From Arcobacter porcinus (GTDB lineage: Bacteria; Campylobacterota; Campylobacteria; Campylobacterales; Arcobacteraceae), in NCBI RefSeq assembly GCF_004299785.2, contig NZ_CP036246.2, positions 1,674,001 to 1,738,000 on the forward strand: a stretch of DNA of 64,000 nucleotides, read 5' to 3'. The translations under genes were made by a program, and so were the position numbers. The notes under the pieces were generated by a model. The model searched no databases, was not told the origin of the DNA, and worked only from the letters and a program-made list of their open reading frames with translations. This document shows, one piece after another, positions 32,631 through 41,647 of this stretch; within the stretch, counting starts at the first letter, position 1; each line of letters starts with the position of its first letter.

Positions 32631-33872
32631 TTATTTTAAATATGGTTTTAAAACTTCTGGTATTATTATTGTTCCATCTTCTTGTTGGTAATTTTCCATT
32701 ATAGCAACAAGTGTTCTTCCAACAGCCAAACTTGAACCATTTAAAGTATGTACAAATATATTTTTTTTGTCATCTTTATATCTTATTTTTGCTCGTCTTG
32801 CTTGGAAATCTCTTGTATTTGATATTGAAGATATCTCTCTAAATTTATTTTGTCCTGGTAACCACACTTCTAAATCAATAGTTGTTGCTGCACTAAATCC
32901 TAAATCTCCTGTACATAGTTGAACTTTTTGATGACAAAGCCCTAGAGAACTTAATAAATCACTAGCTGTTTGTACCATTTTTTCAAAAATTTCATTTGAC
33001 TGCTCTTGTGAAGTTATAGCAACCATTTCAACCTTATCAAATTGATGTTGTCTTATAAAACCTCTTGTATCTCGACCTGCACTTCCTGCTTCTTTTCTAA
33101 AACAAGGTGTATATGATGTAAGAAGCAAAGGTAACTCATTTTTATCTAATATTTCATCATTATAAAGATTTGTAAGACTCACTTCTGATGTTGGAATTAG
33201 GTATAAATCTTCTCCTTCTATTTTGAATAAATCATCTTCAAATTTTGGAAGTTGTCCTGTTCCTAAAAGAGTATTTGAGTTTGCCATAAAAGGAACATAC
33301 CACTCATTAAATCCTCTTTCTCTATTAAAATCAAGCATATAATTTATTAAGGCTCTTTCAAGTCTTGCACCCTGCCCTTTAAGAGCTGTAAATCTTGATT
33401 TTGCTAGTTTTACACCTCTTTCAAAATCTAACCAATCACAAGAGATATCCCAATGCTCTTTTGGAGTAAAAGCAAACTCTGGCTTTTTCCCAAGAACTTC
33501 TAAAACAATATTTTCATTCTCATCAGCTCCAATAGGAACACTATCATCAGGAGTATTTGGTACACCTAAAATAATAGAGTTTAATTCATTTTCTAAATCT
33601 CTAACTTCATCTTCCATATCTTGTTTTTGAGTTTTTAAAGAATTAATTTTTGATTGAAGTTCACTAATATCAAGATTCTCTTTTTTGTATCTTCCAAACT
33701 CTTTTGATAGAAGATTTTGAGAAGCAGTTATCTCTTCCATCTCTTGTCTTTTTTGCTTTGTTTTTAGGGCTTTTTCTTTTAAACTATTTAATAATTCGTT
33801 GCTTACACCTTTTTTTTCTAAAGCTTGGCTAATCTTTTCAAAATCATTTTGTAGTAGTTTTATATCTATCAT
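32631..33872 (-). CDS. serS: Seryl-tRNA synthetase
   Basis: Charges tRNA-Ser and tRNA-Sec. The 413-residue class II enzyme begins with a long antiparallel coiled coil (about residues 30-100) that contacts the tRNA. The catalytic core follows, with the motif 2 region [24 protein letters not shown] (key part [14 protein letters not shown]) near residue 255 and motif 3 [17 protein letters not shown] near residue 380. It is divergent from the second TonB-dependent receptor. Confidence 0.97.
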
Positions 33873-33941: not shown

Positions 33942-33958
33942 ATGCAACTAAGTTGCAT
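33942..33958. promoter_or_regulatory. Operator dyad 1 upstream of the second TonB receptor
   Basis: ATGCAAC-TAA-GTTGCAT is a near-perfect 17-base palindrome with 7-base arms. The same dyad recurs 35 bases downstream. It lies where the -35 region of the receptor promoter would be. Confidence 0.7.
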
Positions 33959-33961
33959 TTA

Positions 33962-33967
33962 TATAAT
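33962..33967 (+). promoter_or_regulatory. -10 element of the second TonB receptor
   Basis: TATAAT lies between the two operator dyads, 52 bases before the receptor's start codon, so binding of a repressor to either dyad would cover the promoter. Confidence 0.55.
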
Positions 33968-33976
33968 ATTTCTTCT

Positions 33977-33993
33977 TTGCAACTTAGTTGCAT
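33977..33993. promoter_or_regulatory. Operator dyad 2 upstream of the second TonB receptor
   Basis: TTGCAAC-TTA-GTTGCAT repeats the first dyad in inverted form; the core TGCAAC-N3-GTTGCA is identical. It falls just after the expected transcription start. Confidence 0.7.
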
Positions 33994-34018
33994 AATTTTT
34001 AATTATAAAGGAAACATT

Positions 34019-36064
34019 ATGAAAATAAATACTAAAGCCAAGATATTTCTTTATTCTTTGCTATTACCTCATCTTCTATTTTCAGAAACAACAAAATTAG
34101 AAGAGGTAAAGATAGAGGAGAAAAGTATAAGCTCAAATTCAATAAATATTGATTTAGATAAAGTTGAACAAAATCAAGCAAACTCATTTAAAGAGATTTT
34201 TGATAACAATTCTTCAATTGAGATTGGTGGTGGAGCTATAAATGTACAAAGAGTCTATTTAAGAGGTTTAGAGAGTTCAAATTTTAATATTTCACTAGAT
34301 GGTGCAAAACAAGGGAAAAATATGTTTCAGCATAGAAGTAATGAACTTGGAATTAATCCAGATTTATTAAAAGTTGTAGATATAAAAACATCTGGTGATG
34401 CTTCAAAAAGTGGAGCTCTTGGTGGAAGTATAGAAATGAGTACAAAAGATGCACAAGACTTTATTAAAGCTAATAAAAGTGCTGGAATTATTTTCAAAAC
34501 TGGATACAACACAAATGCAAATCAAAAATATGGAAATACAACTGCTTATTCAGTTTTTGAAAATAATTTAGGAGCTTATATTAGTATAAGTGGTTTAAAT
34601 AGTGAAGATTATAAAGATGCCAATAAAAATAAAGAGTTAGGAAGTGCATATAAAGATAGAGATTATCTATTTAAAATAAGTTTACTAAATTCAAATAATC
34701 ATGATTTAAGATTATCAATAAACCAAAATGAAAATAGTGGAAATACAAGATGGAGAGGAACTGAATATAGACCAAAACCTGAAGAGCTTGAAAAAATAGT
34801 ATCAACTACTACAAACTACTCTTTAAATCATACTTATAATCCAAACAATTTAGTAAATTTAAATACAAATTTAAATTTAACTGATATATCTTTAGAAAGA
34901 AAAAATGCTAAAAATAAAGATGGTAAAAGAGATTATGAAAATAGAAATATTGGATTAAAAGTACAAAATCACTTTGATTTTGATATATCTTCAACAACAA
35001 ATAGAGTATCTATTGGAGCTGATTATCAAAAAGAGCATGGGAAAGGTAGTTTTTATAAAGATGATTTAAAACCTGCTGATAGAAAAAGAACAAAATATTC
35101 TGATTTAGATTCAGAAAATAGAGCTTTGTTTTTTCAAAATAGAACTACAATTGGCTCTTTAGGCTTTGATTATGGTTTAAGATATGACTACTATACTTTT
35201 GAAACTGGACTTGGGAAACAAAGTGATGATACATTTTCTCCAAATATTGGTCTTGATTATGAAGCTACACAAAACTCTTTGATTTATGCAAACTATGGAA
35301 AAGCTAGTAGAATGAGTAGTATAATTCCATTTACATGGGCACTAAACACAAAAATTGGTTCAACTTACTCAAAAGATTTAAAAGCTGAAAAATCAAATAG
35401 ATATGAACTTGGTTATAAATATAGTAAAAAAGATACTTTTTTAAGTGATGATTATCTATCTTTTAATGCAAATGTTTTTCAAACAAATATTAAAGATTTA
35501 ATTGTATCTAAAGATACAAATTGTTCATCTGGAAAATGTGGAAGCGGTGAAGGTGGATGGACTTTACAAGATATTTACAATAGAGATGATGAGTTTAAAT
35601 CAAAAGGTTTTGAGCTGAAACTTATATACAACTACGATATTTTTTCAACATCTTTTGCTTATACACAAATTGATACTAATAATAGTGCAAGTGATGTTAA
35701 TAACAATTCAGATATAAATGAAGATCAAAATATAAGAAGAGTTGGTGGATACGATAGCAAAAAATTTGTTTTTAATGGTGGAGTTGAAATAATAGAGAAT
35801 TTAAATATTAACTATATTTTAAATGCAGTTGCCAAAACTGATGTTTTAGATAGCAATAATAATGAGATAAGAAGAGCTGGTTATACAACTCATGATATAA
35901 ATTTAGAGTATAAATTAAAAGATTGGACTCTATTTTTTGCTGTTAATAACTTAACAAATAAACAATACGCAAAAGCGACAACAATATCTACAAAAAATCA
36001 AGCAGATGTTTATAGATATGAGATGGGAAGAGATTATAGATTTGCTCTTAAATATGAGTTTTAA
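34019..36064 (+). CDS. TonB-dependent outer-membrane receptor, ligand unknown
   Basis: Outer-membrane receptor of about 681 residues. The chosen ATG has AAAGGAAA before it and opens a signal peptide (MKINTKAKIFLYSLLLPHLL-FSE). A plug with VYLRGLESSNFNISLDGAKQ and LKVVDIKTSGDASKSGALGGSIEM follows, then a barrel ending RFALKYEF with terminal Phe. A longer frame upstream would run through the operator and is rejected. The plug resembles haem/haemophore-type receptors in its DG-AKQG and GALGG pattern, but no clear FRAP/NPNL haem signature was found. A loop with CSSGKCG could form a disulfide. It is regulated by twin dyads and lies next to a cluster of insertion sequences. Confidence 0.85.
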   Translation: MKINTKAKIFLYSLLLPHLLFSETTKLEEVKIEEKSISSNSINIDLDKVEQNQANSFKEIFDNNSSIEIGGGAINVQRVYLRGLESSNFNISLDGAKQGKNMFQHRSNELGINPDLLKVVDIKTSGDASKSGALGGSIEMSTKDAQDFIKANKSAGIIFKTGYNTNANQKYGNTTAYSVFENNLGAYISISGLNSEDYKDANKNKELGSAYKDRDYLFKISLLNSNNHDLRLSINQNENSGNTRWRGTEYRPKPEELEKIVSTTTNYSLNHTYNPNNLVNLNTNLNLTDISLERKNAKNKDGKRDYENRNIGLKVQNHFDFDISSTTNRVSIGADYQKEHGKGSFYKDDLKPADRKRTKYSDLDSENRALFFQNRTTIGSLGFDYGLRYDYYTFETGLGKQSDDTFSPNIGLDYEATQNSLIYANYGKASRMSSIIPFTWALNTKIGSTYSKDLKAEKSNRYELGYKYSKKDTFLSDDYLSFNANVFQTNIKDLIVSKDTNCSSGKCGSGEGGWTLQDIYNRDDEFKSKGFELKLIYNYDIFSTSFAYTQIDTNNSASDVNNNSDINEDQNIRRVGGYDSKKFVFNGGVEIIENLNINYILNAVAKTDVLDSNNNEIRRAGYTTHDINLEYKLKDWTLFFAVNNLTNKQYAKATTISTKNQADVYRYEMGRDYRFALKYEF

Positions 36065-36186: not shown

Positions 36187-37462
36187 ATGAATATTTTAAA
36201 TAAAGAAGAACTACGAAGACAAATAAGAGAAGGGAAAGAGATATCATTAGATGGTATTTTAGAAGAATTTAAATCCCTTCTTAGAGAGTCACTACAAGCA
36301 GCAAGTGAAGAAGAGCTTACTTCACACCTAGGTTATGAGAAACATCAAGAATCAGAAAATACAAACTATAGAAATGGACACAATAAAAAGAGTTTAAAAA
36401 CTAAGTATGGACAAATAGATGTAGCAATACCAAGAGATAGAGAAGGAACATTTGAACCAAAATTAGTTCCAAAAAGAGAGAGGATTTTAAAAGGTAGTGA
36501 AGAGTTAATACTTTCACTTTATGCAAAAGGTATGAGTGTAGCTGATATAAGTACTCACCTTGATGATTTGTATGGCTATCAACTCTCAGAGCAAACAATT
36601 TCAAATATTACTGAAGCTATTATGGATAAAGCAAAAGATGGGTCCCATAAAATTATATTTTATGGGTGTAAAAGTGGCAAAATCGTCCTCTTGAAGCAAT
36701 TTATCCAATAGTATTTCTCACAGAGAGTGCAAGCACAAGATGGATGCAACTGTTTTAAAGATTAGAGTAGATCGAGTTGTAAAAAATATTGCAGCTTATA
36801 TAATGCTAGGTATTACTCTTGAAGGTAAAAAAGAGATACTTGGAATTTGGATTGGTGAAAATGAAACTTCTAAATATTGGTTAACACTATTAAATGAACT
36901 AAAAAATAGAGGTGTAGAAGATATACTAATATTTGCGATAGATGGTTTAAATGGATTTAATCAAGCAATACAAGCTGTTTATCCTAAGGCTGAAATACAA
37001 AGATGTATAGTTCATCAGATTAGAAGCTCTCTAAAATTTGTATCATGGAAAGATAGAAAGGCTGTTGCCAAAGATCTAAAAACTGTATATGGTGCAAAAA
37101 CAGAAGAAGATGCACAAATAGCTCTTACAGAATTTAATGATATTTGGGGTTCTAAATATCCTCATATTGCACAATCTTGGATAAATAACTGGAATGAATT
37201 AGCTACTTTCTTTAAATACCCAAAATCTATTCAAACACTAATTTATACAACAAATCCAATAGAATCACTAAATTCTAATATAAAAAGAAAAACAAACTCT
37301 AAAGGATCATTTCCAACAATAGATTCAGCTTTTAAAATGTTATATATGTCAACACAGGAGGTTCAAGCAAAATGGGAAAGAACTAGTATTAGAAACTGGA
37401 GTGAGATTTATCCTCAACTTTGTATATTTTTCAGTGAAATTATGGAAAAATACACAAAGTAA
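36187..37462 (+). pseudogene. IS256-family transposase, split into three frames by two small insertions
   Basis: The N-terminal 150 residues (start MNILNKEELRRQIREGKE, with NYRNGH and PRDREGTFEPKLVPK) and the C-terminal 240 residues (FAIDGLNGFNQAIQAVYP with a DDE Asp, CIVHQIRSSLKFVSWKDRK and TTNPIESLNSNIKRKT) are typical of the family. Between them the expected WQNRPLEAIYPIVFL is present at 36675-36719, in a third frame. It is separated from the first part by about 35 extra bases containing a perfect hairpin (36644-36666) and from the last part by about 20-23 extra bases. The transposase is therefore non-functional unless both interruptions are bypassed. Confidence 0.85.
36644..36666. repeat. 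Hairpin inside the disrupted IS256 transposase
   Basis: CCCATAAAAT-TAT-ATTTTATGGG is a perfect 10-bp stem with a 3-base loop. It sits in the stretch of about 35 bases inserted into the transposase gene. Repeated AAAAG flanks the stretch (36633-36637 and 36670-36674), as if copied at insertion. Confidence 0.7.
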
Positions 37463-37555
37463 GAAAAAGGGCTAGAGGTGATTTACACAGTTTAGTTTAC
37501 AGTCCCTCCAAAAGTGCACCAAAATGCAGTGCAAAAGTGCACCACTTATTAACAC

Positions 37556-38323
37556 CTATTTATTAGAAATATCTAACAAGCCAGCTTCTCTTTTTTGCTT
37601 TAATCTATAGCTTTCACCAGTAACATTTATTAAATGAGAATGATGGATTAATCTATCTAAAATTGCAGTTGTTAATGCTTCATCATTATTTAATACCTCC
37701 TTCCATTTTGTAAAAGATAAATTTGATGTAATAATTATTGAACCAAGTTCATATTTTTTATTAACTATTTGGAAAAATAGATTAGCTTGAATTTCATTGA
37801 ATTTTACATATCCAAACTCATCTATTACAAGTAATTTTGAGACACCAATTACTCTTTTAAAGTAGCTATCAAGTCTATTTTGAGCTTGAGCACTTTCAAG
37901 TTGAATTATTAAATCACTTGCTGTTATAAATTTAGTTTTTATTCTTTGTTGTGTTGCTGCATATGCAATTGCAGTTGCAAGATGAGTTTTTCCAACTCCA
38001 CTTGGACCAAAGAGTAAAATATTTTTACACTCATCTATAAATCTTAGGGTTAGAATTTCATTAATTAATGTTTTATCAACTGAAGAAGATTTATAATCAA
38101 AGCTATCAATAGTTTTTATTTTTGGAATTCCTGCCAATTTTAAAGCCATTTGTCTGCTTCTTTGCAATCTTCCATCATTTTCAAACTCTAAGAGCCTATA
38201 GAGGTACTCACTATATGATATTTTATCTTCTGAGGCGCTATTGGCTAAGTTTTGATAATGTTTTAATATTCCAGGTAGTTTAAATTTTAAACAGTACTCA
38301 TTTATAGATTCATGCACCAACAT
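37556..38323 (-). CDS. istB: IS21-family transposition helper IstB
   Basis: AAA+ ATPase of 255 residues that helps IstA in target selection. Walker A reads LLFGPSGVGKTHLATAIAYAA near residues 103-123 (core GPSGVGKTH), Walker B LLVIDEFGY near 165-175, and the sensor region IITSNLSFTKWKEVL near 198-212. It begins within the last codons of istA (14-base overlap), the normal arrangement for coupled translation. The gene itself looks intact, although its partner contains a stop codon. Confidence 0.92.
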   Translation of the reverse strand: MLVHESINEYCLKFKLPGILKHYQNLANSASEDKISYSEYLYRLLEFENDGRLQRSRQMALKLAGIPKIKTIDSFDYKSSSVDKTLINEILTLRFIDECKNILLFGPSGVGKTHLATAIAYAATQQRIKTKFITASDLIIQLESAQAQNRLDSYFKRVIGVSKLLVIDEFGYVKFNEIQANLFFQIVNKKYELGSIIITSNLSFTKWKEVLNNDEALTTAILDRLIHHSHLINVTGESYRLKQKREAGLLDISNK

Positions 38324-39359
38324 AAGATACTCCTAATACTTTTTCATAATCTGAAATAGTTGTATGATATTTTATATCCATATTTAGTTTTGATAAATCT
38401 ATAGAACTATTTATTATTTTAGTTTCTTTATTATCTTTTATCTCTTTTACACTTGAATAAAAAGGTTGAAGTAATGGCTTTTCATCTTTAAACATATCAA
38501 TTGGTTTTTTCTTTGTAGTATCATGGACTCTTGAGTTTGCATACTCTAACCAGGTAAATATTTTTGAGTTTAATAAGATAATATCTATTGTTATTTGGCT
38601 TCCTTTAAGTGAAGCTTTTAAAGGTATATAGAAATTGTTTTTTAGATAGTGATTAAATCTTTCTACTTTTCCTTTAGTTTTTGCTCTATATACTTTACAC
38701 AATTTTGGAATGAAATTATCTTTTGCAAACTCTAAAAAATCATTATTAAAGCCATGTTGATTTTTACCATATTTATCTCTTTGTATAACAACACTTTTTA
38801 AATTATCATAAAGTAAAGTCTCTGGAACTCCACCAAAGTATTCAAAGGCTTTTATATGGCACTCTTGCCAAGTAGTTTGTCTCATATTATCTGTAAAATA
38901 GACAAATGCCATTCTACTATATCCTAAAACCATTACAAAGCCATATATTGGTTTCTTACCACTTCTAATTATTGTTCAATCTACTTGTGCTTGATATGAT
39001 GGTTTAGTCTCAAACCTTATTATCTCTTCAGGTTTTAAAATAGGTTTTATTGAACTTAAAAAAGTTTGTAAAATTCTAATCTTTCCATCATAGCCATAGT
39101 TTTTTATCTCTTCATAAATTACACTTGAAGGTATCTTGTCTGGAGAAGCTTGATTTACTCTTTTAATAATGTAATCTTTAAATGAATCTAACTTTGATCT
39201 ATATTCAACTTTTTTATAAGCTTGTAACTCTTTTTCTTGAAGCCTTTTTGAAATTGTCCTTCTATTTAATCCTACTATTTTTGATATAGCTCTTATGCTA
39301 TACCCTCTTTTATATAAAGTATGTATCACGGTAAATTCCTCTTTATTAATCATACTCAC
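38310..39359 (-). pseudogene. istA: IS21-family transposase IstA with an in-frame TGA
   Basis: The two halves are in the same frame, separated only by a TGA at 38976-38978. The N-terminal half has a helix-turn-helix (YKRGYSIRAISKIVGLNRRTI) and ends at YQAQVD. The C-terminal half resumes with TIIRSGKKPIYGFVMVLGYSRM and contains DNLKSVV (second catalytic Asp) and KGKVERFNHYLKNNF (Glu). In IstA the catalytic QVD is normally followed by Trp, so a single TGG to TGA change explains the stop. With standard decoding the transposase is cut before the rest of the DDE domain. Confidence 0.88.
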
Positions 39360-41107: not shown

Positions 41108-41647
41108 ATGTTAGAAGTTTTGATATTAGCATTTGCATTAAGTATGGATGCATTTGCAGTTGCTATTGGAATAGGTATAAAAAATAGATTAAATTTAAAA
41201 ATAATTGCTTTAAAAGTAGCTCTATTTTTTGGTTTTTTTCAAGCTTTAATGCCTTTTATTGGTTATTTAGGAAACATTGGTTTAAAAGATTATATTCAAA
41301 ATTATGACAAAATAATTGCATTTATTTTACTTCTTTTAATTGGTTTAAAGATGATTTATGAAGCTTTTAAAAATGATGAAGATGAAAAAGATTTTAATCT
41401 TACAAACAAAGTATTATTAACTTTAGCTATTGCAACAAGTTTAGATGCTATGGCTGCTGGATATAGTTTACATCTATTTAATATAAATATTTATTTATCT
41501 CTATTTATTATTGGATTTACAACTTTTATAATATCTTATATTGGTGTTTATCTTGGAAGTCGTGGTGGAGAAAAGTATGATCAAAAAGCTGAAATATTAG
41601 GTGGAGTTATTCTTGTATTAATTGGATTTAAAATTTTACTTTTTTAA
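41108..41647 (+). CDS. mntP: Manganese efflux pump MntP
   Basis: Inner-membrane protein of 179 residues with six hydrophobic helices. The duplicated acidic signature of the MntP/DUF204 family is present: ALSMDAFAVAIGIG near residues 10-23 and ATSLDAMAAGYSL near 114-126, each with a buried Asp. The family exports Mn2+ to avoid toxicity. It has its own promoter region after the insertion cluster and converges on the DUF350 gene across a hairpin. Confidence 0.92.
   Translation: MLEVLILAFALSMDAFAVAIGIGIKNRLNLKIIALKVALFFGFFQALMPFIGYLGNIGLKDYIQNYDKIIAFILLLLIGLKMIYEAFKNDEDEKDFNLTNKVLLTLAIATSLDAMAAGYSLHLFNINIYLSLFIIGFTTFIISYIGVYLGSRGGEKYDQKAEILGGVILVLIGFKILLF

What the first reader, a model, noticed from the sequence alone, without database searches (positions are those of the whole stretch)
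33942..33993. Twin 17-base operator dyads flank the promoter of a TonB-dependent receptor
ATGCAAC-TAA-GTTGCAT and TTGCAAC-TTA-GTTGCAT lie 35 bases apart (centre to centre) with TATAAT between them. They do not resemble Fur boxes. The receptor therefore seems controlled by a different regulator that reads TGCAAC-N3-GTTGCA, possibly sensing the transported ligand.
Basis: partly seen in the sequence, partly recalled or inferred. Interest (0 to 1): 0.58.

Follow-up and report, generated by a model that had tools for sequence, protein, structure and literature searches.

The report
Zinc-regulator sites before a metal receptor
The twin palindromes are very probably binding sites for the bacterium's zinc sensor (Zur), so this surface receptor is probably switched on when zinc runs short; the same site stands before zinc-uptake genes in many related bacteria.

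Summary
Observation confirmed. Two copies of TGCAACTnAGTTGCA (33943-33957, 33978-33992) bracket a TATAAT (33962-33967) upstream of a TonB-dependent receptor (34019-36064) in an Aliarcobacter-type genome. TGCAACnnnGTTGCA occurs 4 times in the 2.02-Mb genome (0.03-0.07 expected): twice here, once between a divergent small Fur-family gene and znuA, once before znuC-znuB. 14 of 14 close receptor orthologues have two sites; 8 of 8 distant homologues have none. In relatives the site precedes zur, znuA, PyrC, HisI/RibA and other receptor genes, the classic Zur-regulon set; 22 of 23 sites fetched from other families of the order lie at zur or znuA genes. The same palindrome was predicted in 2004 as the Zur box of Desulfovibrio. 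Best reading: Zn-loaded Zur occupies both sites, blocks the promoter and releases it on zinc starvation; the receptor probably imports zinc or a zinc complex. Binding and transport are inferred, not measured. New member of a known kind; the order-wide Zur box and a zinc-controlled receptor outside the ZnuD model may be new.

The parts
33942..33958 (.). Operator 1 (Zur-box-like 17-bp palindrome ATGCAAC-TAA-GTTGCAT)
   Evidence: identical 15-mer in 14 of 14 orthologues, read in the direction of the gene
33977..33993 (.). Operator 2 (TTGCAAC-TTA-GTTGCAT)
   Evidence: present with at most 1 mismatch in 14 of 14 orthologues
33962..33967 (+). Probable -10 element TATAAT between the operators; start site inferred near 33974
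   Evidence: A TAnnAT hexamer lies 4-6 bases after operator 1 in 13 of 14 orthologues, at 17 bases in the 14th; the tool's sigma-70 consensus scan, which demands a TTGACA-like -35, did not list it
34007..34012 (+). Probable ribosome-binding site AAAGGA
   Evidence: by eye; AAAGG(A) seen in most orthologues
34019..36064 (+). TonB-dependent outer-membrane receptor, 681 aa
   Evidence: Pfam Plug and TonB_dep_Rec_b-barrel above cut-off; NCBIfam heme/hemoglobin receptor subfamily TIGR01785 E 1e-68 but below its cut-off
32631..33872 (-). Neighbour: divergent serS-like gene (seryl-tRNA synthetase; name recalled from the sequence), not thought to be part of the regulon
   Evidence: ORF; same neighbour in L154, L155, L156 and L158, not in L157

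Best explanation
The two palindromes are Zur operators. The regulator is the small Fur-family protein encoded at genome position about 717715-718086 (minus strand), next to znuA. When zinc is sufficient, Zn-bound Zur dimers sit on both sites; operator 1 covers the region just upstream of the -10 element and operator 2 the start of the transcript, so RNA polymerase is excluded. When zinc runs short Zur lets go, and the receptor is made together with ZnuA, ZnuB and ZnuC, which carry zinc (free or as a complex brought in by the receptor) from the periplasm into the cell. Shown here by sequence: sites, their rarity, conservation, gene neighbourhood, regulator family. Inferred: binding, direction of control (repression), start site, zinc as the ligand.
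For: Four genome sites, all at zinc-type loci: two here, one at 718167 (with a 2-mismatch twin at 718117) between the Fur-family gene and znuA, one at 1606991 before znuC-znuB. Twin sites upstream of 14 of 14 close receptor orthologues (54-100% identity) and none at up to 2 mismatches in the loci of 8 of 8 distant homologues (26-35%). 30 of 30 zur loci (L064-L093) carry two or more sites at up to 2 mismatches, 27 of 30 one at up to 1; the same loci give 46 places at up to 1 mismatch against 0 after shuffling. In 59 loci picked by the exact motif or as the receptor (64 site clusters) 53 clusters lie within 300 bp of znuA, zur, receptor/TBDR, PyrC, HisI or RibA genes and 1 lies inside an ORF. 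Exact motif in 26 of 36 genomes with this Zur against 2 of 24 without, Fisher p 9e-7 (the genomes are related, so p is optimistic). 20 of 20 sites fetched by the phylum scan lie at zur/znuABC loci; with three fetched before from other families (L136-L138) it is 22 of 23. The identical palindrome ATGCAACnnnGTTGCAT was predicted as the Desulfovibrio Zur box (PMC545781, passages read). HisI and PyrC paralogues are predicted Zur targets elsewhere (PMC2770081, passages read). Of 5 TonB-dependent receptors in the genome only this one has a site; the loci of the other 4 show none at up to 2 mismatches.
Against: No binding or expression data. NCBIfam names no Zur equivalog for the regulator; its hits are Fur/PerR models far below cut-off. 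2 zur loci (L147, L149) have no site at up to 1 mismatch. 10 of 36 Zur-bearing genomes lack the exact motif. Some sites stand before genes with no obvious zinc role (TehA/outer-membrane protein pair 4, methyltransferase 4, 4 unlabelled clusters, of 64), and the site in L138 lies inside an ORF. The receptor's nearest named families are heme/hemoglobin and FrpB-type iron receptors, not ZnuD, and a structure model failed (mean pLDDT 28), so zinc as its ligand rests on control alone.
Confidence: 0.9

Rival explanations
1. The sites are Zur operators, but the receptor carries something other than zinc (heme, another metal, or a metallophore) that is merely useful in zinc shortage.
For: Best sequence relatives are heme receptors ShuA and PhuR and, by profile, FrpB. 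A plug histidine (H105, invariant in 6 of 6) lies near the ShuA plug histidine in the alignment. N. meningitidis ZnuD is reported to mediate zinc or heme uptake (PMC3872050, passages).
Against: It is the only one of 5 receptors in the genome with zinc-type control. The second heme-ligand region of ShuA (KHFS before the NPNL box; role recalled) aligns with a stretch without histidine. No nicotianamine-synthase-type metallophore gene was found in the genome.
Confidence: 0.25
2. One of the other two Fur-family proteins of the genome (a Fur and a PerR-like protein) reads the sites.
For: Both exist, and Fur-family boxes share the 7-1-7 geometry.
Against: The site does not resemble the Fur consensus GATAATGATnATCATTATC quoted; sites lie beside the zur-type gene in 30 of 30 zur loci and the motif follows its presence.
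Confidence: 0.05
3. The palindromes act in RNA as hairpins or a terminator/attenuator, not as DNA operators.
For: Operator 2 followed by T's is listed as terminator-like; the two copies pair with each other when the strand is folded, z -5.4.
Against: Two copies of one palindrome must pair. The letters themselves, not merely the pairing, are kept (15-mer of operator 1 identical in 14 of 14), and the same letters stand at divergent promoters such as zur/znuA, where no single transcript explains them. The probable start site lies between the copies.
Confidence: 0.02
4. Chance palindromes in AT-rich DNA.
For: At up to 2 mismatches the window count is not unusual.
Against: Expected 0.03-0.07 exact sites per genome, 4 found, all at zinc-type loci; conserved in 14 of 14 orthologues.
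Confidence: 0.005

Closest known systems
Desulfovibrio ZUR_D box ATGCAACnnnGTTGCAT upstream of znuABC-zur (Rodionov et al. 2004, PMC545781; computational prediction)
   Same: Identical 17-bp palindrome, same target operon type, Fur-family regulator beside it.
   Different: There one site per operon in two genomes; here paired sites and, in relatives, a wider target set including receptors, PyrC, HisI/RibA. The relation of the two Zur proteins was not tested.
Zur-controlled TonB-dependent zinc receptor ZnuD of Neisseria meningitidis
   Same: TonB-dependent receptor under (here predicted) Zur control; both have been linked to heme receptors by sequence or function.
   Different: The window receptor does not match the NCBIfam ZnuD model at E 0.001 and no ZnuD structure was found by sequence or profile.
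Caulobacter znuK/znuL/znuM Zur-controlled receptors (PMC4176598)
   Same: Several TonB-dependent receptors in one Zur regulon (passages).
   Different: The motif searched there was GTTA-N5-TAAC; another phylum or class.
Fur box and other 7-1-7 Zur boxes
   Same: 7-1-7 palindrome type (PMC6103462, passages).
   Different: Half-site TGCAACT in place of the Fur- and GTTA-type half-sites.

Membership tests
Zur regulon | Fur-family regulator encoded beside or within a znuABC locus | tested here: met
   Pfam FUR 52.6 bits against cut-off 23.1, divergent from znuA (Pfam ZnuA, E 2e-63)
Zur regulon | Shared palindrome upstream of zinc uptake genes, rare elsewhere | tested here: met
Zur regulon | Paralogues of zinc-dependent enzymes (PyrC, HisI) under the same site | tested here: met
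   Met in relatives, not in this genome: PyrC 10 and HisI/RibA types 16 of 64 clusters (labels HisI-RibA 11, RibA 4, HisI 1); predicted Zur targets per PMC2770081
Zur protein | Conserved metal ligands: HxH, two CxxC pairs | tested here: met
   H.HF[IV]C..C..I.C in 35 of 35 Zur rows (34 genomes, one entered twice), not in the 3 Fur and PerR-like rows; C-terminal CxxC seen by eye in the same alignment. Which residues bind zinc is recalled.
Zur protein | Zinc-dependent DNA binding | not testable with these tools
   needs biochemistry
ZnuD zinc receptor | Match to NCBIfam NF038289 | tested here: not met
   not among hits at E 0.001
TonB-dependent heme receptor | TIGR01785/TIGR01786 above curated cut-off | tested here: not met
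   232 against 317 bits and 198 against 324 bits
TonB-dependent receptor | Plug and beta-barrel domains | tested here: met

The most novel reading that the evidence does not exclude
An outer-membrane zinc receptor family of Aliarcobacter, not of the ZnuD family, whose promoter is bracketed by two Zur operators, within a Zur regulon whose box TGCAACTnAGTTGCA is kept across the order and shared with Desulfovibrio; in one other family of the order the Zur proteins keep the box although they lack the usual HxH metal ligands.
Probability: 0.6. Interest if true: 0.45.

Novelty: new member of a known kind. Interest (0 to 1): 0.36.

Why it matters
It turns an anonymous palindrome into a usable zinc-starvation box for Arcobacter-type bacteria and their order, assigns a regulator, and predicts which of a genome's several TonB-dependent receptors serves zinc. 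Zinc uptake through ZnuABC is reported to matter for Campylobacter jejuni infection (passages). None of my paper searches (listings) showed a Zur box for this group, though most subscription papers are not held.

Tried and rejected
Fur box: rejected, the half-sites differ. Chance: rejected. RNA hairpin: rejected. Degenerate own-genome sites: 309545 and 1784846 (2 mismatches) lie inside ORFs, and 1614564 lies inside a restriction-modification-like ORF; 769663 (2 mismatches) lies some 60 bp upstream of a gamma-carbonic-anhydrase-like gene (name recalled from the sequence), a plausible but unproven target. At 3 mismatches there are 80 places against 41 of the control, so these were not used. Structure prediction of the receptor failed (mean pLDDT 28), so no fold search was made. 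A metallophore gene (PF03059) was sought and not found. The Zur protein was not sent to structure prediction, since it is not in the window and its loci came from the genome search.

Dropped before counting: the 15 loci L139-L153, fetched mostly around zur genes, were left out because they were not picked by the motif; of the 5 exact sites of G032 and 3 of G035 not all were seen, since the list was cut. One search found the motif in 39 of 121 genomes; I fetched 20 of those places, chosen by eye from the list, many with a centre like the window's, leaving out for example G042, G086, G099 and G126, whose centres differ, and several near-duplicates. G041, G050 and G055 had been fetched before (L138, L136, L137). 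So 20 of 20 and 22 of 23 are not random samples.

Full report
Observation. The two palindromes are exactly where stated. As 15-mers they read TGCAACTAAGTTGCA (33943-33957) and TGCAACTTAGTTGCA (33978-33992); each half-site is TGCAACT, with one central base, i.e. 7-1-7. A TATAAT lies between them at 33962-33967 and the receptor ATG is at 34019. The genome (2,018,219 bp, one contig) contains four TGCAACnnnGTTGCA and none of the reversed control; 0.03 are expected from composition and 0.07 from a Markov estimate.

The other two genome sites name the regulon. One (718167) lies between a divergent pair: a 124-aa Fur-family gene and znuA; a 2-mismatch twin (718117) lies closer to the Fur-family gene. 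The other (1606991) lies just before a zinc-type ABC ATPase and permease gene pair, read as znuC and znuB (best NCBIfam hits are AztA/AztB and others below cut-off). A 1-mismatch site (119348) precedes an 85-aa cysteine-rich protein whose relatives have an exact site in front in 3 loci (L096, L101, L106; Pfam DUF2116 hit just below cut-off). The genome has three Fur-family genes.

Orthologues. Among 60 genomes searched (the own genome included), 14 carry a close orthologue of the receptor (54-100% identity) and all 14 have two sites with at most one mismatch each, spaced 31 (4 genomes), 34 (5), 35 (4) or 45 bp (1), with operator 2 ending 19-27 bp before the start codon. Eight more distant homologues have none at up to 2 mismatches in the locus. 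A TAnnAT hexamer stands 4-6 bases after operator 1 in 13 of 14. Named records among the orthologues are Arcobacter vandammei, A. cryaerophilus gv. crypticus and Aliarcobacter vitoriensis.

Regulon in relatives. Exact sites occur in 28 of 60 genomes, 26 of 36 with this Zur and 2 of 24 without (the Zur set was drawn by hand, and counts a fragment in G025). In 64 exact site clusters (59 loci) the genes within 300 bp were: receptor 14, HisI-RibA type 11, PyrC 10, ZnuA 8 plus a second ZnuA type 5, Zur 8, other receptors 7, RibA 4, TehA 4, outer-membrane protein 4, TehB-type methyltransferase 4, zinc-ribbon 3, HisI 1, porin 1; 4 clusters were unlabelled and 1 lay inside an ORF. 14 of the 64 are the receptor loci themselves. 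At zur genes, 30 of 30 loci have two or more sites at up to 2 mismatches. A phylum scan found the motif in 39 of 121 genomes; 20 of 20 places I fetched from that list lie at zur/znuABC loci, and with three places fetched before it is 22 of 23.

Known work. The same palindrome was predicted as the Zur box of two Desulfovibrio genomes (PMC545781, passages). PyrC and HisI paralogues are predicted Zur targets elsewhere (PMC2770081, passages). Zur-controlled receptors are known in Neisseria and Caulobacter (passages). The 2018 Zur review (PMC6103462) does not mention Campylobacter in its main text (term count 0). Searches for a Campylobacterota Zur regulon in the held library gave listings without one; the paper on the C. 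jejuni znuA gene is not held, so this is weak evidence of novelty.

Mechanism. Operator 1 covers the region upstream of the -10 element and operator 2 the region just after the inferred start, so a zinc-bound repressor on either could block the promoter. The operator spacing varies (31, 34, 35, 45 bp), so the data do not require two dimers to touch on one face of the helix. The receptor's substrate is inferred from its control. It resembles heme and FrpB-type receptors, fails the ZnuD model, keeps one plug histidine and lacks a histidine at the second heme-ligand region of ShuA (ligand roles recalled).

Verdict. A confirmed and well explained observation: predicted Zur operators of a zinc-type outer-membrane receptor. 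Ordinary in kind, useful in detail.

Noticed in passing
L159-L173, L178 (zur genes of other families of the order): 16 of 20 Zur-like proteins at zur/znuABC loci outside Arcobacteraceae lack the HxH before the first CxxC, yet have the same operator; 4 of 20 (L174-L177) keep it. Their metal site may differ.
   Followed up: partly
L006 5013-5363 (genome 119012-119362): A small cysteine-rich protein gene followed by a MerR-type (HspR-like, name recalled) gene has a 1-mismatch Zur-box-like site in front; orthologues have exact sites.
   Followed up: partly
L157 2515-3795, L158 2466-3837, L154 6065-7027: A cation-efflux (CDF) gene, in two of three with a metal-sensing repressor gene (PF02583), lies beside the orthologous receptor (the L157 genes were not scanned and are read by likeness).
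   Followed up: no
window 36187-38933: Downstream of the receptor lie a Mutator-family transposase gene split over two ORFs, and an IS21-type istB with an integrase-core ORF, suggesting insertions between the receptor and the mntP-like gene at 41108.
   Followed up: no
L095, L098, L102, L109: Exact sites between a 280-aa outer-membrane-like protein and a TehA-like transporter (names by likeness, no Pfam hit for the two scanned from L095): possible new Zur targets.
   Followed up: no
genome 769663 (L008 3664): 2-mismatch site upstream of a gamma-carbonic-anhydrase-like gene; such genes are Zur targets elsewhere.
   Followed up: no
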